36,622 bases of DNA, from NCBI GenBank assembly GCA_009840625.1, contig VXNJ01000004.1, positions 1 to 36,622 of the forward strand, read 5' to 3'. Position numbers and translations under genes: made by a program. This DNA is from Chloroflexota bacterium. Lineage in GTDB: Bacteria; Chloroflexota; UBA11872; VXNJ01. Positions 7,007-16,950 of this stretch are shown here, piece by piece; the first letter of the stretch is position 1; every line of letters starts with the position of its first letter. Under the pieces are notes generated by a model that was given only the letters and a program-made list of their open reading frames with translations, was not told the DNA's origin and made no database searches.

Positions 7007-7621
7007 ATGGATCAGATTTTCGACCTTGTCGGATCACTGGTTGGAGGCATAGCGTTGGTCTGGGTCACCGCGGCGACCGCCTTGGTGGTGTCGATCCTGT
7101 ACCTGCTGGCCCGCGCCCACAACATGGGCACGATACGCTTTTCGGTTGCCGGGCTGCATCTGCTATTTGCCCGCCTGGTGGCCCTGGTCATGGTGCTGAT
7201 CACTTTCCTGGCCGTGGTCAAGATCCTCACTGCGGTGCTCTCGCTGCTGTTCGGCGACGCATTCGCCTACGGGGGCGGATCGGACGTGGACGAGCTCGAG
7301 GTGCTTGCCCGATGGGTCGTTTACGGGGCCCTGGCGGTGGTGATCTATATCTTCATGCTGATCCGGGCCCGGCAACTGGCCGACTCTCCGCCGGCGCAAT
7401 TCATCCGCACTGCGTATTTGACGATCGCGTCCGGGATTTTCTGCGTCACTTCGATCATCTACACCTTCCGCCTGGCCGGCGCGATCATAGACACCGCCAT
7501 CGAACCGAGCAGCATTTTCGACCGCAGTCCGGCGATCGGGCAGCCGCTGGTGATCCTGGTGGCCGCCGTCGCCTTCTTCTTCGTTGCCGGCTATTTCGCG
7601 CGCCGGGAAGGCAGCGCCTGA
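7007..7621 (+). CDS. Unrecognised multi-pass membrane protein
   Basis: A 204-residue protein with about five hydrophobic segments, near residues 8-35, 48-82, 102-120, 135-160 and 178-197. I recognise no family, no catalytic motif and no signal peptide apart from the first membrane helix. A soluble acidic stretch (GGSDVDELE) lies between segments two and three, and short charged patches (RARQLAD, ARREGSA) mark probable cytoplasmic ends. The hydrophobic pattern and codon usage, typical of neighbouring GC-rich genes, support a real gene. It is divergent from plsY, and nothing is encoded downstream for about 500 bp. Function unknown. Confidence 0.75.
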   Translation: MDQIFDLVGSLVGGIALVWVTAATALVVSILYLLARAHNMGTIRFSVAGLHLLFARLVALVMVLITFLAVVKILTAVLSLLFGDAFAYGGGSDVDELEVLARWVVYGALAVVIYIFMLIRARQLADSPPAQFIRTAYLTIASGIFCVTSIIYTFRLAGAIIDTAIEPSSIFDRSPAIGQPLVILVAAVAFFFVAGYFARREGSA

Positions 7622-7737
7622 CCCAGTCGGCGCAGGCCTGGCCCGCTTGGCGGTCGGTAAAGCACCTCGATCCGTATTCGGCTCCTCAAAACGATGTGAT
7701 CATCGGGTCCGGCCGCAGACTCTGATTTGGGCAGTAA

Positions 7738-7751
7738 GGTTCGATCGAACC
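7738..7751. repeat. 14-bp perfect palindrome
   Basis: GGTTCGATCGAACC is perfectly self-complementary. It lies five bases outside the left copy of the island-flanking direct repeat. It could be a recombination or protein-binding site; no function is established. Confidence 0.5.
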
Positions 7752-7755
7752 GCGG

Positions 7756-7775
7756 CCCCGCTGGCGCGGCGCCAC
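7756..7775. repeat. Left copy of the island-flanking direct repeat
   Basis: CCCCGCTGGCGCGGCGCCAC matches 12703-12722 at 19 of 20 positions in the same orientation. The two copies bracket the mod-res genes and their AT-rich flanks, about 4.9 kb. This is the arrangement expected of an attachment-site or target duplication. Confidence 0.55.
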
Positions 7776-7798
7776 TGTGCAGTCATCGAATCCGACGG

Positions 7799-7825
7799 CT
7801 AAATGACCCGCAGTTTGGCATTTAG
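7799..7825. repeat. Inverted repeat with 7-bp arms
   Basis: CTAAATG and CATTTAG are separated by 13 bases, just inside the left direct repeat. A shorter dyad, ACAAACTTTGT, follows immediately. There is no T-run typical of an intrinsic terminator. Confidence 0.4.
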
Positions 7826-7988
7826 ACAAACTTTGTTGATGCTGGCAGCCTCAATCGGATATCAGCCCGTTTGGGCCTACTATTTCGGGCATGTCGATTC
7901 CGTTTACGTCAAATAAGCTCGAATTCATTGCGTGCGGCAAATTGGATCCCGGCAACTAGGAATTTCGGTGGGGGCCAAGCGGGGGCAG

Positions 7989-8014
7989 ATCGGGCTGGGG
8001 AAACTCTGCCCGAT
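7989..8014. repeat. Inverted repeat with 7-bp arms downstream of res
   Basis: ATCGGGC and GCCCGAT arms surround a 12-base loop. This could act as a weak bidirectional terminator, since TTTA follows on the plus strand, but there is no real T-tract. Confidence 0.35.
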
Positions 8015-8037
8015 TTAGGTCAATGCCATGGCTTCAA

Positions 8038-8049
8038 TTCGACGTCGAA
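8038..8049. repeat. 12-bp perfect palindrome downstream of res
   Basis: TTCGACGTCGAA sits inside a looser dyad (TCAATT and AATTGA outer arms). It lies about 90 bases past the res stop codon. Confidence 0.4.
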
Positions 8050-8139
8050 AAATTGACCTTAGAAACTACCTGAGTACCGCATCACAACCGATTCACATCG
8101 AATGAACGATCGCTTGTGTCGCCAGAAATCACACTGCAA

Positions 8140-10719
8140 TTACGAAACCCGTCGGCCCAATATCCCGTTCAATTTTTCTTGCCATTCATCCTCGTCAACG
8201 ACTTCATAAGTGACGGCTTTGCTGCGCATCGCCGGTACAAGGTCGGCCCACTTTGCTTCGCGCGCGTGTTCGCAGCAAATATCAAACACCGACCGCTTGT
8301 AATTCGAGTCTTCTGATTCCTTCAAATGAACGCCTTTTGTTTCGACTACAAATATTTGGTCAAACTCTTCACCACTCGCGGTCGCATCCCCACGCATAGT
8401 CACGATGAAGTCAGCGTAGATCCGTTTTCGTTTCCAACCTTGAACGTAATGGTCCTTGCGGGCGCGATTACGGTACCAAAAGTAGAGCTTCTCTTGCTGA
8501 TCCAAATAAGTCGCAACTTGGCTCTCGAACTGATTGAGGTCATCCTCCATCGTTGAATCGAATAGATTTCGCTGAAAGGGGCGTCCATCTTCGCGATTTG
8601 CTCGTTTCGCACTCGGGACATCGATTTGACCGGGAATTCGATTGAATTCGAGGTTTTCTGCAACAACTAAGAATCTCATCTCTCCCGAATTCAGCAAGCT
8701 ATGGAACACCTCGCGAGAAAGACGATCCCGCACATCTTCGACGTGTCGGCGAAGCGATTCCAGGACAAAAACCTGATTAGCCAAAACGATTTCAACCGGG
8801 TAGCGCTCAAGCAGGGCCTCGAATGTGCACCGAACAATTTCGTGGCCGCGCCACGGATTGGAAATCAAATCCACAAGGTGGCTAGTCGCGTAATAGAAGC
8901 AATTTGAAAGTTCGAGGCCAGGGTCGGCTTGTGGTCCATCCGGCTTAGCGGTGGCGATCAAATTTTCTTCGGTGACTGCTGGCGGCATTACACGTACCCC
9001 CGCAGTTAGGTTGGCAAGCAGCTTGACATCCCCATATATGCCTTCACCCAAATGCATATGGTCCACCTCTGGGGGAGTCAAATCATCCCAGGGCACCCTC
9101 GAAAGAATGTCCGCCTCGTAGTGCACCGGTCGCCAACCATCTTCATCCCGAATAACGAAGGCAGGTAGTACAAGATTGCGCGTAGAAGCTCTAAACCGTG
9201 ACCGCTGACTAGTTCTGATCGTACTTTTTGAGGCGGCCGAGTCGACTTCAGTTACAACTTTGCCTTCGAGGCCCTGCAATCCTTCAAGTCCAAATCCCTT
9301 TCTGATTTCTTTCAACAGCTCGGTACCTCGCCGGCTGAAGCAGAAGACATAGCTTTCATCAAGCAAAGGCACACCTGTTTTGCGCGCATATGGCTGTCGC
9401 AGGATTCGGCCAACCAATTGCGTAATTCCAGTCTTCGACTGTGGGTTCGTAAGGATCGTCAGAACGTATGCGAACGGGCAATCCCAACCTTCTTGCAATG
9501 CCTGCTTGGTGATGATGAAACGGATTGGACAGTCGCGCGACAACAGTCCCCCTACGTCGTCCACATCCTTGAGCTCGTTCTTGGAACTCGTTTTAATTGC
9601 GACATGCTCCGCTTTTATTCCCGGGTGGCGAAGCAAGCTTTCGCGCACATCTTCCGCGTGGATGTAACCGGGTCTTCGCTGTTGGGCTCCCGTTCTTTCC
9701 ACTTGAATGACGCACAGTGGACGAATGTACGTCCCGGATTCAGCAATGTGACGATTAGCTTCAATTTCAAGTCGCTCACGATGGTCGATCGACGCAAAGA
9801 GTGTGTCTTTCCAATCGCCGCTCGATTTATTGATGACGTGCAAATCGAGCTTGATCATTTCTTCAGCGTGTAATTCCAATCCCAGAATCTCGACCAGTAC
9901 GTTTGCTCCCGAAGCTGGGGTTGCCGAAAGCTCTACGATCATGCAAGGATTGAATCCCTCGAGGGTCGCTTTCGCGTTGTCGCTGTACGCTTTGTGCCCT
10001 TCATCCAGGATGACAAGAGGGTTAAGGAGCCGCACTGTATTCCCGAGTGAGGTCTTCGCTAATCGACCCCAAAATCCATCCGGATGCTCAAAGGTATCTA
10101 AATTCGGGACCTCGTCGAGAAGTTTCTTGTGCGCAACAGGATCATCGTCAGCGGGGAAAAACTCATCGAATCCGCCGCTGTCTCGAAATATACGAAGAGT
10201 GTCTCTTGTTCGCCGATTTGCAGACGGGAGCATCAGCAGGAGAATGCAGAGATTCTCGGAAACATCACTCGGCCCAAAGGTCGCGGTTTTCTCGAAAATA
10301 TGCGTGCGTTGGCCAGATGTTAAATCGAGGTTTTGGCGGTAAGGGTGATCGCGGTCTCTTAGTGCTCTAAGCGTTTGATCGTATATCTGCTGCGTGGGTA
10401 CGATCCACAGTACCAAACCGCGCCGACTCCCCCGAAAGCGCGCGTTAACAATATCAATGACGCGCGTGGCGAGCAAAGTTTTGCCGCCGCCAGTTGGAAT
10501 CTTTAAGCAAAACGCTGGCAGCCGTTCGCCAAGTCCGTTGCGCCGCGGATTGTAAGGCCTTGTTGGCACCGTCTTTTCCCACGCGCGCTGCACCCAATCG
10601 AATCCCCAATCAGGGTCTAGTCTCTGCGCCGCCCAATCCTTCTCCCGCCATTCAGCAAGCTGCTGAACAAAAGTCTGGACCGTCGCCAATGCTCGATTCT
10701 GATAGTCCTTCAATATCAT
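8140..10719 (-). CDS. res: Type III restriction enzyme, Res subunit
   Basis: The 859-residue ATP-dependent translocase/nuclease that pairs with Mod to cleave DNA at unmethylated sites. An SF2 helicase core is clear: Walker A PTGGGKT (75-81), motif II DEGH (239-242), motif III SATP (265-268), motif V EGWD (410-413) and motif VI GITQLVGRILRQP (431-443). The C-terminus has a PD-(D/E)xK-type nuclease signature: Asp770 in YADFI, then Glu793 and Lys795 in VETKG. The ATG at 10717-10719 overlaps the mod stop as ATGA, so translation is coupled. The gene is full-length and undisrupted. Base composition is clearly lower in GC than its surroundings (42% by hand count at 8281-8340, against 60% at 2341-2400 in acs), consistent with transfer. 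Confidence 0.95.
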   Translation of the reverse strand: MILKDYQNRALATVQTFVQQLAEWREKDWAAQRLDPDWGFDWVQRAWEKTVPTRPYNPRRNGLGERLPAFCLKIPTGGGKTLLATRVIDIVNARFRGSRRGLVLWIVPTQQIYDQTLRALRDRDHPYRQNLDLTSGQRTHIFEKTATFGPSDVSENLCILLLMLPSANRRTRDTLRIFRDSGGFDEFFPADDDPVAHKKLLDEVPNLDTFEHPDGFWGRLAKTSLGNTVRLLNPLVILDEGHKAYSDNAKATLEGFNPCMIVELSATPASGANVLVEILGLELHAEEMIKLDLHVINKSSGDWKDTLFASIDHRERLEIEANRHIAESGTYIRPLCVIQVERTGAQQRRPGYIHAEDVRESLLRHPGIKAEHVAIKTSSKNELKDVDDVGGLLSRDCPIRFIITKQALQEGWDCPFAYVLTILTNPQSKTGITQLVGRILRQPYARKTGVPLLDESYVFCFSRRGTELLKEIRKGFGLEGLQGLEGKVVTEVDSAASKSTIRTSQRSRFRASTRNLVLPAFVIRDEDGWRPVHYEADILSRVPWDDLTPPEVDHMHLGEGIYGDVKLLANLTAGVRVMPPAVTEENLIATAKPDGPQADPGLELSNCFYYATSHLVDLISNPWRGHEIVRCTFEALLERYPVEIVLANQVFVLESLRRHVEDVRDRLSREVFHSLLNSGEMRFLVVAENLEFNRIPGQIDVPSAKRANREDGRPFQRNLFDSTMEDDLNQFESQVATYLDQQEKLYFWYRNRARKDHYVQGWKRKRIYADFIVTMRGDATASGEEFDQIFVVETKGVHLKESEDSNYKRSVFDICCEHAREAKWADLVPAMRSKAVTYEVVDEDEWQEKLNGILGRRVS

Positions 10720-12425
10720 GGTTCGAGGCCAGAAATCGTTTCGTAAATCTGGAACGGAAGTTGCTGAAAGTCAATCTGGTAGTAGTGAAGGAATTCGCGA
10801 TCAAGGTACTTTGTTGGCGCGAATACCAATTTGCGTCTATCACTGGCGGGTAACTCCCGGGCCACTGCAAGCGAGAGCGCGAGGTCTTTCAATTTCTCGA
10901 CGTCGGGCTCATAAATGAGAAAAACATCATGTGATGCGGTGCGCCCAATAAGCCCCAAATTCTCATTGGCCTCAGTCGGATCGAATTCCAGTCCAGTTGC
11001 GGTGAAGAAAACATATTCCGCCAGTTTCTGCCATGAGGGTAGGTGAGAACCGTCCAACAAGTTCTCTTGGCGCATCGGTAATCCGAGTTCGAAAAAGCTG
11101 AAGCTGCCTCCGAATCCCGATTTGACGGCATCAACTCTAGAGTTGGGCACTCCATTGATGACACGTCTAACCCGTTCAGCAGTAATCGAATCGGCGTATT
11201 CCTCGCATTCGACAAGAATGAATCGCCTGTTGCCGCCGTCCTGGCGATTCAGGGTGAGTACAGCATGGGCTGTCGTACCAGATCCGGCGAACGAATCAAG
11301 GACAATGGCGTCTTTGTCAGTTGAGAAAGAGAGCAGTTCACTGATCAGCGTTGATGGTTTCGGATTCTTGAAGATTCGGGGGTCCTCAGGGAAGATTTCC
11401 CGGATTTCATTTGCTCCGAGCCTGGAATCAATTCCTTGAATCACGCTGCCGAGTTTTGCCATATATTCGTCGGCGTATACCTTTAGTTCAATAATTTTTG
11501 ACTCATCTGATCCGAATAAAACGCGGTTTTCTGCAATCAATTGGGCCATCGTTGCTTCCGGGAAGCGATATCCCATCAACGGCTGCTTGCAAGGCTTGCC
11601 GGTAACCGGATGAAGAACGTCATAACGGTATCCTTCGCGCCCCGGGTTATGAACACTTTGGCTTCCCGTAAAAACGCCCGCGTCATCGATGAATTTGTAG
11701 CGGTCTAGCGGCTTAAGCTGCATTTTGTGAGATTTGAGCCAGCGCGTGTACTCGCGTTGGCGTTCGACCGGTTCAGGGTGAGCCTCCAATAGCTCAGCAC
11801 CAATCTGCTGAAGCGCTTCTTTCGGCCCAAACTCGGCGGAATTCCACACTCCCTCGAGGGCGGTTTTGTTGGCGGCATAGCAAACAATGTACTCGTGTTC
11901 GACCGCAATATTTGTCGGGTTGTTGTCAGTCGAGCCATGCCATACGATCTGTCCGACAAAGTTGCTTTCCCCGAACACCTCGTTCATCAAGCTCCGCAAA
12001 TGGTGCATCTCGTTGTCGTCGACAGACACGAAAATCGCACCATCTTCCCTAAGTAACTCTCTCAGCAGATTGAGTCGGGGCATCATCATGCAGCACCACT
12101 TGTCGTGACGGGTGAGGTCATCACGGTCCACGATCCGGCCCAACCATTCCCGCATGAGAGGCGAATTCACTTTGTCGTTGTACGCCCAACCTTCTTTGCC
12201 AGTGTTGTATGGCGGGTCAATATAAATGCACTTCACTTTCCCTTGATATGTCGGCAAAAGCGCCTTTAAAGCCGCTAAGTTGTCACCGTGAAGTACCAGG
12301 TTGTCTTGCAGGCTGCATCTCTCACCTACCCCTTTCCCTCGAATCGGCACCAATTCGTGGAAAGGCACAGCTACATGGTGGTTTTCGACGAAGACCCTTC
12401 CTTTAAATTGGAGCCTCGGCAACAA
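10716..12425 (-). CDS. mod: Type III DNA-adenine methyltransferase, Mod subunit
   Basis: The 569-residue modification and specificity subunit of the type III system; it should methylate N6 of adenine within an asymmetric site. Catalytic motif IV DPPY (70-73, in IYIDPPYNTG) comes before the AdoMet-binding motif I FAGSG (379-383), the beta-class order of type III Mod proteins. The region between them (about 150-360) is the probable target-recognition domain. There are two adjacent TTG codons and no ATG. The frame begins at 12425, but the second TTG (12420-12422) is better spaced, five bases after GGAGG. It overlaps res by four bases. The recognition sequence cannot be inferred. No simple-sequence repeat that would suggest phase variation was seen. 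Confidence 0.93.
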   Translation of the reverse strand: MLPRLQFKGRVFVENHHVAVPFHELVPIRGKGVGERCSLQDNLVLHGDNLAALKALLPTYQGKVKCIYIDPPYNTGKEGWAYNDKVNSPLMREWLGRIVDRDDLTRHDKWCCMMMPRLNLLRELLREDGAIFVSVDDNEMHHLRSLMNEVFGESNFVGQIVWHGSTDNNPTNIAVEHEYIVCYAANKTALEGVWNSAEFGPKEALQQIGAELLEAHPEPVERQREYTRWLKSHKMQLKPLDRYKFIDDAGVFTGSQSVHNPGREGYRYDVLHPVTGKPCKQPLMGYRFPEATMAQLIAENRVLFGSDESKIIELKVYADEYMAKLGSVIQGIDSRLGANEIREIFPEDPRIFKNPKPSTLISELLSFSTDKDAIVLDSFAGSGTTAHAVLTLNRQDGGNRRFILVECEEYADSITAERVRRVINGVPNSRVDAVKSGFGGSFSFFELGLPMRQENLLDGSHLPSWQKLAEYVFFTATGLEFDPTEANENLGLIGRTASHDVFLIYEPDVEKLKDLALSLAVARELPASDRRKLVFAPTKYLDREFLHYYQIDFQQLPFQIYETISGLEP

Positions 12426-12509
12426 TTCCTCCCATAGTCAAATCTTGCGTTTGAGATTCGCAAAGCGGACGCATCGAGTCAACACATATCCGCGAAACAA
12501 ATCCCAGTT

Positions 12510-12529
12510 ATTGCGTTCGGTCACGCAAT
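12510..12529. promoter_or_regulatory. 20-bp dyad upstream of mod, candidate operator
   Basis: ATTGCGTTCGGTCACGCAAT has perfect 7-bp arms around a 6-base centre, about 85 bp before the mod start. It would suit a dimeric regulator, but no controller gene is present in the island. A TTGACT hexamer lies at 12477-12482 on the minus strand, without a good -10 partner. Confidence 0.35.
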
Positions 12530-12680
12530 TGAGCCGATGATCTAGCGCGGCAGAACTGAATCGGCCCCGGTCCCGATTTCATTGCCGGTGCGGTCGCCGC
12601 ATTTTCATCGATTGCGCCAACCACTCCTAAGTTTGTCGATCTATTTGGGCAATTGTCATTTTCAGCAGGCGGTCCAACGA

Positions 12681-14063
12681 TCAAGTCTGCTCGTACCAGG
12701 GCCCCCGCTGGCGCAGCGCCACCGGATCCAGCGCCGGGATTTCACCGCCGGCGTCGGCGCGGATCCTATCCGTGGCCAGACCCAGCGCGGCGGATTCGGA
12801 TCCGGCCACGTTTTTGGCGCATGCCGGATAGTCGCGCAGAACCGAGAAAAGCTTCGGATCGGAACCGTCACGGTTGACGATCAGCCACCAGTCGCGATCA
12901 CGATAGAAGAACTGCTCGCCCATTGCCGAGGTGACGTATTCGCGGCCGCTGGACGATCCGCCAAGGTCGATTCCGTCAATCGGCAGCGGCGCTTCGATTC
13001 CGAGCCTTGCAAGGATCGTCGGCAAAACGTCGGAGTGGTAGACGAAGTCCTCGCGGACCTGTCCGGCGCCTTTTCCGTTCGGGTCGCGCACCAGCAGAAT
13101 CACGTCCATCAACTCGGGGTGCATGTAAAGTCCGTCCTTGCCGATGTAGCCGTGCTCGCCCAACGGGTGGCCGTGGTCGGAGTTGATCACGACCAGGGTG
13201 TCGTCGGACAACCCCAGGACATCCAGATGGTCCAGGAACCGACCCAGCCAGCGATCGGTCATCGTCACTTCGCCGGCGTAAAGCGAACGAATGTGTTCCA
13301 GCTCCACGGCGCTGATCGTGTTCAGATCGATGCGCGTCGGCCAGATGTAGTCGCGGCCCGAGTAGTCGGGATCATATGGTTCCCAACGCCAGGGCGGCGG
13401 GTCCCAAGGTTCGTGCGGATCAAAACAGTCCACGCTGAGAAAGAAGGGGCGCTCGCGGTTTTCTTCCAGAAATCGCATCGCGGCCCTGAATACCTGCGGC
13501 GCAAAGCAGTCTTCCTCGTGCCGGCGCGAATCGACGTTGGCAAGGTACTGGCGCAGCATCTGGTCGCGAACGCTGCCGACGTCCGAATCGGGCTGCACGC
13601 GCCGGACCTGCTGCATCGGGATGCGGAACCGCGATTGAAAGAGGTCGTTTTCCTGCCCCCGGATCCAGCGGAACTGGTTGAACCCGCGGTGAAAGTTCAT
13701 GGCCGGCTTGAACTGGTGGTAAACGTCGGTTACCAATCCGGTGTGGTACCCGTTATGGCGCAGGATCTCGGCCATCGTGACCCGCGCATCGTCCAGCGGG
13801 TGCCATCCGGGCCAGCGGACGAAATCGCCCTTGCGGCTGAAATGGTCGGCGAAGGGAAAGATCCTTCGGCCGGTATAGAGCGCCTGGCGCACCTCGATCG
13901 TGGGCAAGCTCTCCGGGTAGGGCTGGGCGAATCGGAGCGACTGGGTCGCAAACCGGTCCAGGCAGGGGGTGTTGGCGCGCCCGCCATAACAGCCAACGTG
14001 GTCGCGGCGCAGCGAATCGAGCGTGACCAGGACGACGTTGGGCGCTTTTTGCAGGGACGGCAT
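12681..14063 (-). CDS. Sulfatase-family hydrolase, paralogue A (Thr in place of formylglycine Cys)
   Basis: A 460-residue alkaline-phosphatase-superfamily protein with a sulfatase-like fold. Metal-binding elements are visible: Asp16 and Asp21 in LDSLRRD, His217 in DPHEPW, Asp296-His297 in SDHG and His304 in GEHG. In sulfatases the nucleophile lies in C/S-x-P-x-R before LxTG. Here the aligned stretch is TIEVRQALYTG, with Thr55 in the nucleophile position, Glu in place of Pro, and Arg59 kept. Formylglycine cannot form from Thr, so a Thr-nucleophile phosphoesterase-like activity or a changed role is possible. No signal peptide is seen. It starts three bases after the stop of paralogue B and is last in the operon. 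Its 3' end contains one copy of the island-flanking repeat. Confidence 0.85.
   Translation of the reverse strand: MPSLQKAPNVVLVTLDSLRRDHVGCYGGRANTPCLDRFATQSLRFAQPYPESLPTIEVRQALYTGRRIFPFADHFSRKGDFVRWPGWHPLDDARVTMAEILRHNGYHTGLVTDVYHQFKPAMNFHRGFNQFRWIRGQENDLFQSRFRIPMQQVRRVQPDSDVGSVRDQMLRQYLANVDSRRHEEDCFAPQVFRAAMRFLEENRERPFFLSVDCFDPHEPWDPPPWRWEPYDPDYSGRDYIWPTRIDLNTISAVELEHIRSLYAGEVTMTDRWLGRFLDHLDVLGLSDDTLVVINSDHGHPLGEHGYIGKDGLYMHPELMDVILLVRDPNGKGAGQVREDFVYHSDVLPTILARLGIEAPLPIDGIDLGGSSSGREYVTSAMGEQFFYRDRDWWLIVNRDGSDPKLFSVLRDYPACAKNVAGSESAALGLATDRIRADAGGEIPALDPVALRQRGPWYEQT
12703..12722. repeat. Right copy of the island-flanking direct repeat
   Basis: CCCCGCTGGCGCAGCGCCAC differs at one base from the copy at 7756-7775. 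It lies within the last 15 codons of sulfatase-like gene A. A repeat in the 3' end of a gene, with foreign-looking DNA just beyond, resembles a site-specific integration target. No integrase is present. Confidence 0.55.
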
Positions 14064-14066
14064 GGC

Positions 14067-15440
14067 CTAAAGCATCTCGTACCAGGGGCTGGCCCGGCGC
14101 AGTTGTTCGGGGGTGATGTCGGGAAATTCCCCGCCGGCCTGGCGCAGGCAGATTTCGAAGAACCGGTCGCAGCGGTCCGCGTTGCCGGAGGCCAGGTTGT
14201 TGCGACAATCCGGGTCCGAACGCAGATCGTAGAGGTGCTGGTCTGAGCGCCCGTGGTCGGAAAAGTACCAGTATTCGGAATCGGCGTAGGCCACGTAGTT
14301 GTGGAATCCGGTCACGGCGTGATCGCGGCCCGGCGCACTGCCGTCGGCGATTGCCAGCAGGTCCTGGCCCTCGACCGGCAACGGCGCTTCCAGGCCCAGT
14401 TGGTTCAACACAGTCGGCATCAGGTCATGGGTGTAGACAAACGAATCGCAGGAGGCGCCACCACCTTCGCCGCCGGGCCGCCGGACCATCAGGAATATGT
14501 CGACCAGTTCGGGATAGAGGGACCTGGGGAGCTTGCCCATGACCCCGTGCTCGCCCAGGCTGTGCCCATGGTCGGACAGCACAATGAGCAGCGTGTCATC
14601 CATGATTCCAAGATCGTGACAGTGTTCTAGGAAGATGCCCAGCCAGCGGTCGGTCATGGTCACCTCGCCCGCGTAGAGGGCGCGTATCAACCGCAGTTCC
14701 TCGGGCCCGAGCCCATCGCAGGGTCCGTAGTTGGGCCAGATCAGGTCGGTACCACGGTAACCGGGCGCGTAGCGATCGAGGTACCAGCGCGGCGGGTCCC
14801 AGGGTTCGTGCGGATCGAAGCAGTCGACAAATAGCAGGAAGTCCTGTTCGCGGTTGTCTTCTATGAACCGCATCGCCTCGGAAAATACGCGGGGGGCGAA
14901 GTAGTCCTCTTCGTAGCGGCGCCAGGCCACATTCGCAAGGTAGCGCTGGATTCGCTCGCGACCGGCATCGGTGTGCTGGACGGGGTAGCTGTGCGCGGTT
15001 GCCGTGGCCTCGTCAATCAAGTGCCGAGATTGCCAGCGATCGCTCTCTTGGCCGCGAACCCAGATGAACTGGTTGAACCCGCGGTGGAAATTCATCGCCG
15101 GTTTGAACTGGTGGTACACGTCGGTTACGAGGCCGGTGTGAAACCCGGAATTTCGGGCTATCTCAGACAGCGTCACCGCACTCTCCGGATGGGCCTCCCA
15201 GCCGGCCCAGGGGACCGCGTCGCCCTTGGGAGTCTGGTGGCCGCCGAACGGGAAAACCCGGTTGCCGGTATGAATTGCCCGGCGCGTCTGGATGGTGGCC
15301 AGCGCCTCGGGCTTTGGGTTGGTGAATCGGACCGCCTCGCGACTGAGCTGGTCAAGGGCGGGCGTGTGGATGGCATCGGCGCCGTAGCAGCCGACGTGGT
15401 CGCGCCTCAAGGAGTCCAGGATCACCACGATCGCCTTCAT
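14067..15440 (-). CDS. Sulfatase-family hydrolase, paralogue B (Thr in place of formylglycine Cys)
   Basis: 457 residues from the ATG at 15438-15440, preceded by AAAGG about eight bases upstream; an earlier in-frame start would add 12 residues without family support. It has Asp9 and Asp14 in LDSLRRD, a DPHEPW histidine, SDHGHSLGEHG, and Thr49-Ile-Gln-Thr-Arg53 where C-x-P-x-R is expected. The following RRAIHTGNR matches the RxxLxTGR that follows the nucleophile in sulfatases. It has the same length as paralogue C and near-identical blocks throughout, so the two are probably a tandem duplication. It is separated from C by 136 bp and from A by three bases. Substrate unknown; sulfate, phosphate or phosphonate esters are all possible. 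Confidence 0.85.
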   Translation of the reverse strand: MKAIVVILDSLRRDHVGCYGADAIHTPALDQLSREAVRFTNPKPEALATIQTRRAIHTGNRVFPFGGHQTPKGDAVPWAGWEAHPESAVTLSEIARNSGFHTGLVTDVYHQFKPAMNFHRGFNQFIWVRGQESDRWQSRHLIDEATATAHSYPVQHTDAGRERIQRYLANVAWRRYEEDYFAPRVFSEAMRFIEDNREQDFLLFVDCFDPHEPWDPPRWYLDRYAPGYRGTDLIWPNYGPCDGLGPEELRLIRALYAGEVTMTDRWLGIFLEHCHDLGIMDDTLLIVLSDHGHSLGEHGVMGKLPRSLYPELVDIFLMVRRPGGEGGGASCDSFVYTHDLMPTVLNQLGLEAPLPVEGQDLLAIADGSAPGRDHAVTGFHNYVAYADSEYWYFSDHGRSDQHLYDLRSDPDCRNNLASGNADRCDRFFEICLRQAGGEFPDITPEQLRRASPWYEML

Positions 15441-15478
15441 GTCGGGCACCTTTCTGCGTGCGCAGCTGGCGGGCACCG

Positions 15479-15505
15479 AAAAATCATAGCCGCCAATCGA
15501 CGGCT
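15479..15505 (-). terminator. Possible weak terminator between paralogues C and B
   Basis: On the minus strand, AGCCG and CGGCT arms surround an 8-base loop and are followed after four bases by TTTTT. The stem is only 5 bp, and an alternative GGCTG/CAGCC pairing lies upstream. It could attenuate transcription into paralogue B. Confidence 0.3.
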
Positions 15506-15576
15506 GGTAGCAGCCAAATCATCGCCGCCACTGCCCCGGTGCCAAAGAAGCGCTGCCGCCAAAAGCGCCGCGCGGT

Positions 15577-16950
15577 CTAGACCAACTCGTACCAGGGTCC
15601 GGCCCGACGCAGTTGTTCGGGAGTGATCTCGGGAAACTCCCCGCCGGCCTGGTGCCGGCAGATTTCAAAGAATCGGTCGCAGCGGGCGCGATCCCCAGCG
15701 GCCAGGTTGTTTCGACACCCCGGATCCTCGCCGAGGGAGTACAGGTGCTGGTCGGAGCGCCCGTGATCGGAAAAGTACCAGTATTCGGAATCGGCGTAAA
15801 CGACATAGTTGTGGTATCCGGTTACGGCAAACTCGCGTCCCGGACGACGGCCGGAGGCGATATCCAACAGATCCCGGCCCTCGATAGCCAGGGGCGCTTC
15901 CAGACCGAGGTGGGCAAGCACAGTCGCCGGGACATCATGCGTGTAAACGAACGGGTCGCAACTGGATCCGCCGTTCTGGCCCCCGGGCGGCCGTACCATC
16001 AAGATTATGTCAATTAACTCGGGATAGCTCGAAAACGGAAGCTTGCCCATGACCCCGTGCTCGCCCAGACTGTGCCCGTGGTCGGAGAAGACGACCAACA
16101 GGGTCTCGTCCATGATCCCCAGACAGTGACAATGCTCCAGGAAGATTCCCAGCCAGCGATCGGTCATTGTCACCTCGCCCGCGTAGAGGGCCCGGATCAG
16201 ATCGATTTGATTTTTTTCCAGCCCTTCACAGCGTCCGTAGCTGGGCCAGATCAGATCGGTCCCGCGATACCCGGGAGCGTAACGGTCCACGTACCACCAC
16301 GGCGGGTCCCAGGGCTCGTGCGGATCGAAGCTGTCGACCACCAGCAGGAAATCCCGTTCGCGGTTGTCTTCGACGAAACGCATCGCTTCGGTGAAAACCT
16401 GCGGGGCGAAGTAATCGGCTTCGTAGTGGCGCCGGGCGACGTTTGACAGATAGCGCCGGAACCGGATCCGGCGGTATTCGTTGTGTTGGGCAGGATAGCT
16501 ATGGGCTTCGACGGAATCCCGGTCGACCAATTGGACGGACCCCCAGTGGTCGTTTTCCTGGCCGCGAATCCAGTGGAACTGGTCGAATCCGCGGTGGAAA
16601 TTCATCGACGGCTTGAACTGGTGGTAGGTATCGGTGATCAGGCCGGTGTGAAAACCGCTGTGACGGGCTATCTCGGCCATCGTCACGACGGACTCCGAAT
16701 GCGGTCCCCAACCCGGCGTACGGTTGATGTCGCCCTTATAGCTTTGGTGATCTCCGAAGGGGAACACGCGGTTGCCGGTGTGTACCGCGCGACGCGTCTG
16801 CAGGGTTGCCAGTGCCTCGGGCTTGGGGTTGTTGAACCGAATGGATTCGCGGCTGAATTGGTCGAGGGCCGGCGTGTGAATGGAATCGGCGCCATAGCAG
16901 CCGACGTGGTCGCGACGCAACGAATCCAGAATCACGACGATCGCCTTCAT
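15577..16950 (-). CDS. Sulfatase-family hydrolase, paralogue C (Thr in place of formylglycine Cys)
   Basis: 457 residues, from the ATG at 16948-16950 with AAAGG a few bases upstream. The domain layout matches paralogue B: LDSLRRDHVGCYG at residues 8-20, Thr49-Leu-Gln-Thr-Arg53 at the nucleophile site, HTG at 57-59, DPHEPWDPP in the middle, and SDHGHSLGEHG. The C-terminal ITPEQLRRAGPWYE is shared with B. No secretion signal is visible: the N-terminus MKAIVVILDS is the first strand of the fold, so the enzyme appears cytoplasmic. This is the first sulfatase-like gene after the TPR gene (82 bp gap) and probably heads the enzyme part of the operon. Confidence 0.85.
   Translation of the reverse strand: MKAIVVILDSLRRDHVGCYGADSIHTPALDQFSRESIRFNNPKPEALATLQTRRAVHTGNRVFPFGDHQSYKGDINRTPGWGPHSESVVTMAEIARHSGFHTGLITDTYHQFKPSMNFHRGFDQFHWIRGQENDHWGSVQLVDRDSVEAHSYPAQHNEYRRIRFRRYLSNVARRHYEADYFAPQVFTEAMRFVEDNRERDFLLVVDSFDPHEPWDPPWWYVDRYAPGYRGTDLIWPSYGRCEGLEKNQIDLIRALYAGEVTMTDRWLGIFLEHCHCLGIMDETLLVVFSDHGHSLGEHGVMGKLPFSSYPELIDIILMVRPPGGQNGGSSCDPFVYTHDVPATVLAHLGLEAPLAIEGRDLLDIASGRRPGREFAVTGYHNYVVYADSEYWYFSDHGRSDQHLYSLGEDPGCRNNLAAGDRARCDRFFEICRHQAGGEFPEITPEQLRRAGPWYELV

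What the first reader, a model, noticed from the sequence alone, without database searches (positions are those of the whole stretch)
7756..12722. Type III restriction-modification island bracketed by a 19/20 direct repeat
The mod-res pair and its gene-free arms are AT-richer than both sides (hand counts: 42% GC at 8281-8340, 60% at 2341-2400). CCCCGCTGGCGC[G/A]GCGCCAC occurs in the same orientation at 7756-7775 and 12703-12722. A 19/20 match at two arms of an anomalous segment is unlikely by chance. The right copy lies in the 3' end of a sulfatase-like gene, as at attachment sites of integrating elements. No integrase or transposase is encoded, so it may be a stripped or passively moved island of about 4.9 kb.
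Basis: partly seen in the sequence, partly recalled or inferred. Interest (0 to 1): 0.65.

Follow-up and report, generated by a model that had tools for sequence, protein, structure and literature searches.

The report
Acquired type III restriction-modification gene pair

Summary
Two 20-mers (19/20) lie at 7756-7775 and 12703-12722 and are the only copies with at most one mismatch in the 2.27-Mb genome. They sit at the edges of a segment of 51% GC in a 64% GC host. The segment holds an apparently intact type III mod-res pair with no mobility gene. Chance alone would place such a repeat there with a probability of roughly 3e-5 to 5e-4.

The attachment-site reading does not hold. The right 20-mer is ordinary sulfatase coding sequence, and the bases after it still encode the family's conserved tail (GPWYEQT-stop). 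The true junction therefore lies past the stop codon. The sequence beyond the left copy cannot encode that tail.

Two same-family genomes have the same gene block with a DUF4032-like gene in this slot; the window's genome has none. This looks like an R-M operon acquired into a variable slot, probably by illegitimate recombination. The left 20-mer may be a small junction copy of the sulfatase end.

A side result: Mod's recognition domain is 58% identical to EcoP15I's (distal lobe 71%, checked contact residues kept) but unlike that of its Chloroflexota relatives. CAGCAG specificity is predicted.

The parts
7776..12680 (.). AT-rich, foreign segment carrying the mod-res operon; left limit taken at the end of the left 20-mer, right limit at the sulfatase stop codon (the limits are inferred)
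   Evidence: ML composition edges 7766-7823 and 12646-12706, 51.1% vs 64.1% GC; sulfatase tail native up to its stop at 12681
10716..12425 (-). mod: type III N6-adenine DNA methyltransferase, 569 aa, TTG start, EcoP15I-like
   Evidence: N6_N4_Mtase; PADLOC MTase_III 3.8e-185; EcoP15I Mod 1.8e-120
11463..11831 (-). target recognition domain of Mod (residues 199-321), EcoP15I-like
   Evidence: 71/122 identical to the EcoP15I TRD, distal lobe 41/58; 8-18 of 90 positions shared with Chloroflexota relatives over residues 246-335
8140..10719 (-). res: type III restriction subunit, SF2 helicase motor with a C-terminal PD-(D/E)xK-like motif, 859 aa
   Evidence: ResIII; PADLOC REase_III 2.8e-162; motifs read in the translation
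7756..7775 (+). left 20-mer, non-coding, at the left composition edge; S1-specific copy of the sulfatase 3' end
   Evidence: similarity to the sulfatase end fades after about 20-32 nt
12703..12722 (+). right 20-mer, part of the coding sequence of sulfatase S1
12681..14063 (-). sulfatase S1, intact, with conserved GPWYEQT-stop end; right flank of the segment
   Evidence: Sulfatase 2e-37; tail alignment
7007..7621 (+). 204-aa predicted membrane protein gene, left flank; convergent with the operon
   Evidence: a distant relative lies at the matching place in G003

Best explanation
The segment from about 7776 to about 12680 is a horizontally acquired type III restriction-modification operon. Shown: foreign base composition, an apparently complete mod-res pair, relatives scattered over unrelated neighbourhoods, and a slot held by a DUF4032-like gene in two same-family genomes. 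Inferred: it entered by illegitimate or homology-assisted recombination of incoming DNA between the sulfatase stop codon and the region downstream of the 204-aa gene, replacing the DUF4032-like gene or landing in an already variable slot, without an integrase. Inferred: the left 20-mer is a short copy of the neighbouring sulfatase end made at the junction during that event, not a recombination core. Function, inferred from homology: a Mod2Res1 complex methylates adenine on one strand of an asymmetric site, probably CAGCAG, and cuts unmethylated DNA after ATP-triggered sliding between two sites.
For: Composition and GC3; mod-res identity; no other family member has Res, while scattered Chloroflexota and plasmid relatives exist in different neighbourhoods; DUF4032-like gene in the slot in G001 and G003 and none in this genome, with the search shown to work on G001 and G003; native sulfatase tail beyond the right 20-mer; repeat unique and located at the edges; EcoP15I contact residues kept.
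Against: No genome of the same genus is held, so neither the empty site nor the replacement has been seen directly. G002 and G004 of the family also lack the DUF4032-like gene, so loss and gain cannot be polarised. The junction-copy step for the left 20-mer is not shown. Activity and specificity are untested.
Confidence: 0.65

Rival explanations
1. The 20-mer match is a chance coincidence at the edges of an ordinary acquired R-M operon; everything else is as in the best explanation.
For: The arms have several matches of 18-20 nt and equal or better score elsewhere in the genome. The right copy is plain coding sequence, and similarity beyond the 20-mer is not significant (about 10% of random stretches do as well).
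Against: It is the only non-paralogous 19/20 pair in the window, both copies touch the composition edges, and 0 of 5000 shuffles of the edges reach the score.
Confidence: 0.2
2. The R-M unit inserted by itself with a target duplication, as proposed for some R-M systems; the left 20-mer is what remains of a duplicate of the sulfatase 3' end.
For: Left copy is specific to S1, in the same orientation, with weak continuation to 27 of 32 columns; such insertions are described for R-M units (PMC3874152; PMC3031569).
Against: The duplicate must run past the sulfatase stop (at least 42 nt), but identity is 19/20 and then about half over the next 22 nt, which uniform decay does not explain. Relatives carry another gene in the slot. 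No significant terminal inverted repeats (219 of 3000 shuffles as good). Type III systems are described as less mobile (PMC3874152).
Confidence: 0.1
3. A stripped integrase-borne element with attachment sites in the 3' end of the sulfatase gene.
For: Repeats at both ends, one in the 3' end of a gene; unique in the genome.
Against: The element would have to bring a functional GPWYEQT-stop tail, and the displaced original tail below 7756 should be recognisable; in no frame is it. No recombinase in the segment. Mod-res relatives show no such repeats.
Confidence: 0.05

Closest known systems
EcoP15I type III restriction-modification system (PDB 4zcf, PMC4490356)
   Same: Mod of the beta class with DPPY and FxGxG motifs in the same order, TRD 58% identical (distal lobe 71%), all nine checked residues conserved; mod and res adjacent
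   Different: Res is only remotely similar (3.1e-6); Mod is 569 aa against 644; outside the TRD Mod is closer to Chloroflexota homologues
PADLOC REase_III / MTase_III subfamilies PDLC03653 and PDLC03640 or PDLC03644
   Same: Near full-length Res match (residues 50-849) and near full-length Mod match (3-561)
   Different: Nothing notable
R-M units inserted with short or long target duplication (Furuta 2010 and Nobusato 2000, as described in PMC3874152 and PMC3031569)
   Same: R-M unit without a mobility gene, short direct repeat near both ends
   Different: The repeat does not coincide with the right junction; relatives carry another gene in the slot; no significant terminal inverted repeats

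Membership tests
Type III restriction-modification system | Beta-class N6-adenine Mod with motif IV (DPPY) before motif I (FxGxG) and a TRD between them | tested here: met
   DPPY at residues 70-73, FAGSGTT near 380, TRD 199-321; EcoP15I Mod 1.8e-120
Type III restriction-modification system | Adjacent Res with SF2 helicase motor and C-terminal PD-(D/E)xK nuclease | tested here: met
   ResIII and REase_III matches; PTGGGKT, DEGH, SATP, QLVGRILRQP and a C-terminal ADF...VETKG read in the translation; nuclease assigned by eye
Type III restriction-modification system | Mod2Res1 assembly, one-strand methylation, ATP-dependent two-site cleavage | not testable with these tools
   biochemical property
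Site-specific integrated element with att repeats | Element-encoded integrase or recombinase | tested here: not met
   only mod and res fill the segment
Site-specific integrated element with att repeats | Repeats lie at the element-chromosome junctions and restore the target gene | tested here: not met
   right 20-mer is followed by the native sulfatase tail; left copy has no displaced tail
R-M unit inserted with target duplication | Duplication spanning the whole target, up to both junctions | tested here: not met
   similarity stops about 20-32 nt in, before the right junction at or below 12680
R-M unit inserted with target duplication | Empty site with one copy of the target in a close relative | not testable with these tools
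   no same-genus genome held; same-family genomes have a DUF4032-like gene in the slot

The most novel reading that the evidence does not exclude
A type III R-M unit moves on its own, without a mobility gene, by inserting at the 3' end of a gene and leaving a short target duplication.
Probability: 0.08. Interest if true: 0.45.

Novelty: new member of a known kind. Interest (0 to 1): 0.2.

Why it matters
It is one more case of an R-M operon acquired without any linked mobile element, in an uncultured marine Chloroflexota lineage. It shows that a unique direct repeat at the edges of an island need not be an attachment site. The EcoP15I-like recognition domain gives a concrete prediction (CAGCAG) in a phylum far from E. 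coli, which long-read methylation data could check.

Tried and rejected
Interspersed or REP-like element: the 13-nt palindromic core TGGCGCNGCGCCA occurs at 5 places in the genome, against 8 per strand for the reversed control. Terminal inverted repeats of a transposon: GACAAACTT arms at 7825 and 12637, not significant (219 of 3000 shuffles as good). tRNA or Rfam RNA at the edges: none. Structured att-like site: the minus strand of 7700-7800 folds with z -2.7 as RNA but only -0.6 as DNA. Remnant of the DUF4032-like gene in the window: none. Mobile parent in viruses or phages: no close relative. Repeats flanking four homologous mod-res pairs: none convincing. Furuta 2010 itself is not held.

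Full report
The window is part of a 60-kb contig of a 2.27-Mb, 97% complete genome in 20 contigs. Its closest named relatives are Chloroflexota metagenome-assembled genomes; that they are marine I infer from their titles. The right part of the window encodes ribosomal proteins, SecY, adenylate kinase and an RNA polymerase alpha subunit, so this is chromosome.

Observation. No other place in the genome has one mismatch or fewer. In the window, 17 of the 18 direct 20-mer pairs with 19 matches join the three tandem sulfatase genes; the eighteenth is this pair. A two-state composition fit puts the edges of the AT-rich segment at 7766-7823 and 12646-12706, with 51.1% GC inside and 64.1% outside. 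Third-position GC of res and mod is 0.54 and 0.57 against 0.73-0.84 for neighbours. The 200-nt edges align with a score that no shuffle reached. A caution: whole-genome BLAST of the arms gives several 18-20 nt matches of equal or better score elsewhere. Taking about three such hits per arm in 4.5 Mb of both strands, a match falling in the opposite 518-nt arm has a chance probability of about 3e-4, and one falling at both edges about 3e-5 (my arithmetic). The repeat is therefore probably tied to the segment, but not beyond doubt.

What the segment is. It holds a mod gene and a res gene that overlap by 4 nt on the minus strand. Mod matches EcoP15I Mod at 1.8e-120 and PADLOC's type III methyltransferase models. 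Res matches type III restriction models at 2.8e-162 and EcoP15I Res only remotely. Helicase motifs and a C-terminal nuclease motif can be read in the translation. Both frames are open. Nothing else of note is encoded between the edges.

Why the 20-mers are not attachment sites. The right copy is coding sequence of sulfatase S1, and the bases after it finish the gene with GPWYEQT-stop. The two paralogues in the window end PWYE plus two residues and a stop, and S1-like genes in G001 and G003 end GPWYEQV. The tail is therefore native, and the incoming DNA must start beyond the stop codon, at or below 12680. In a 20-bp target duplication or a 20-bp att core, bases 12681-12702 would belong to the element and the original tail would lie just left of 7756. 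Six-frame translation of that stretch shows no such tail. Similarity beyond the left copy continues to 27 of 32 columns with one gap, but an extension that good is seen in about 10% of random stretches.

What relatives have at the locus. In G001, the sulfatase is followed by a 312-aa gene and a G3P acyltransferase homologue, then homologues of the window's left genes in the same order. In G003, the sulfatase is followed by a DUF4032 gene, a distant relative of the window's 204-aa gene in the matching orientation (25%, E 2.3e-4) and the acyltransferase homologue. The G001 and G003 slot genes are related to each other (35%, 3.6e-49). The window's genome has no match to either, while the G001 query hits both G001 and G003, so the search works. 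Mod-res thus occupies the slot of this gene. G002 and G004, also of the family, lack the gene too, so loss or gain cannot be polarised. None of the four other family members has a Res match.

Where the operon came from. Among 301 Chloroflexota genomes, Res relatives are scattered (51% in G142, 38-40% in G006, G019 and G233), each in a different gene neighbourhood. Plasmid relatives reach 45%. No viral or phage relative was close. No direct repeats like these flank the other mod-res pairs examined.

Recognition domain. Over residues 41-190 Mod is 56-69% identical to its Chloroflexota relatives, but in residues 246-335 it shares only 8-18 of 90 positions with them, against 60 of 89 with EcoP15I. 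With the published EcoP15I borders (TRD 263-384, distal lobe 319-376; PMC4490356) the identity is 71/122 and 41/58, and Asp123-Tyr126, Asn232, Asn233, Pro324, Asn416 and Lys418 are all conserved. I infer CAGCAG or a near variant as the site. Movement of type III recognition domains between non-orthologous Mod proteins is already known (PMC3874152).

Mechanism judged most likely. Incoming DNA carrying mod-res recombined into, or replaced the gene in, the slot between the sulfatase and the 204-aa gene, with no element-encoded recombinase. The left 20-mer is best seen as a small copy of the nearby sulfatase end left at the junction; that step is inference. Complete R-M systems are known to be gained in small regions with few linked mobile elements (PMC4176335), and illegitimate joining of an R-M plasmid at 1-3 bp of identity has been seen in the laboratory (PMC3031569). 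Target duplication, as described for some R-M units (PMC3874152), is the main mechanistic rival; it would need the duplicate to run past the stop codon, which is not seen.

Verdict. A real but ordinary acquired type III R-M operon with a real but misread edge repeat.

Noticed in passing
11463-11831 (minus): The Mod recognition domain is EcoP15I-like and unlike that of its nearest Chloroflexota relatives, suggesting CAGCAG specificity and a recognition-domain swap.
   Followed up: yes
12681-16950 (minus): Three tandem sulfatase genes; the genome has 32 sulfatase-like matches, very many for 2.27 Mb.
   Followed up: no
L060:7291-8660: The S1-like sulfatase next to the slot in G003 is split over several frames, a pseudogene or an assembly error.
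   Followed up: no
L061 (G001:C1:24000-43000): This same-family locus shares the gene order but has 45.6% GC against about 64% in the window, a large composition gap within one family.
   Followed up: no
7711-7799 (minus): The minus strand across the left edge folds better than all 200 shuffles as RNA (z -2.7) but not as DNA; possibly a terminator-like structure between convergent genes.
   Followed up: partly
7825-7846 and 12616-12637: Imperfect inverted repeat (GACAAACTT core) near both edges of the segment, not significant by shuffling.
   Followed up: yes
L148 (G037:C83:4437-5900): A homologous Res gene in G037 matches with an in-frame TGA, so it may be broken or read through.
   Followed up: no
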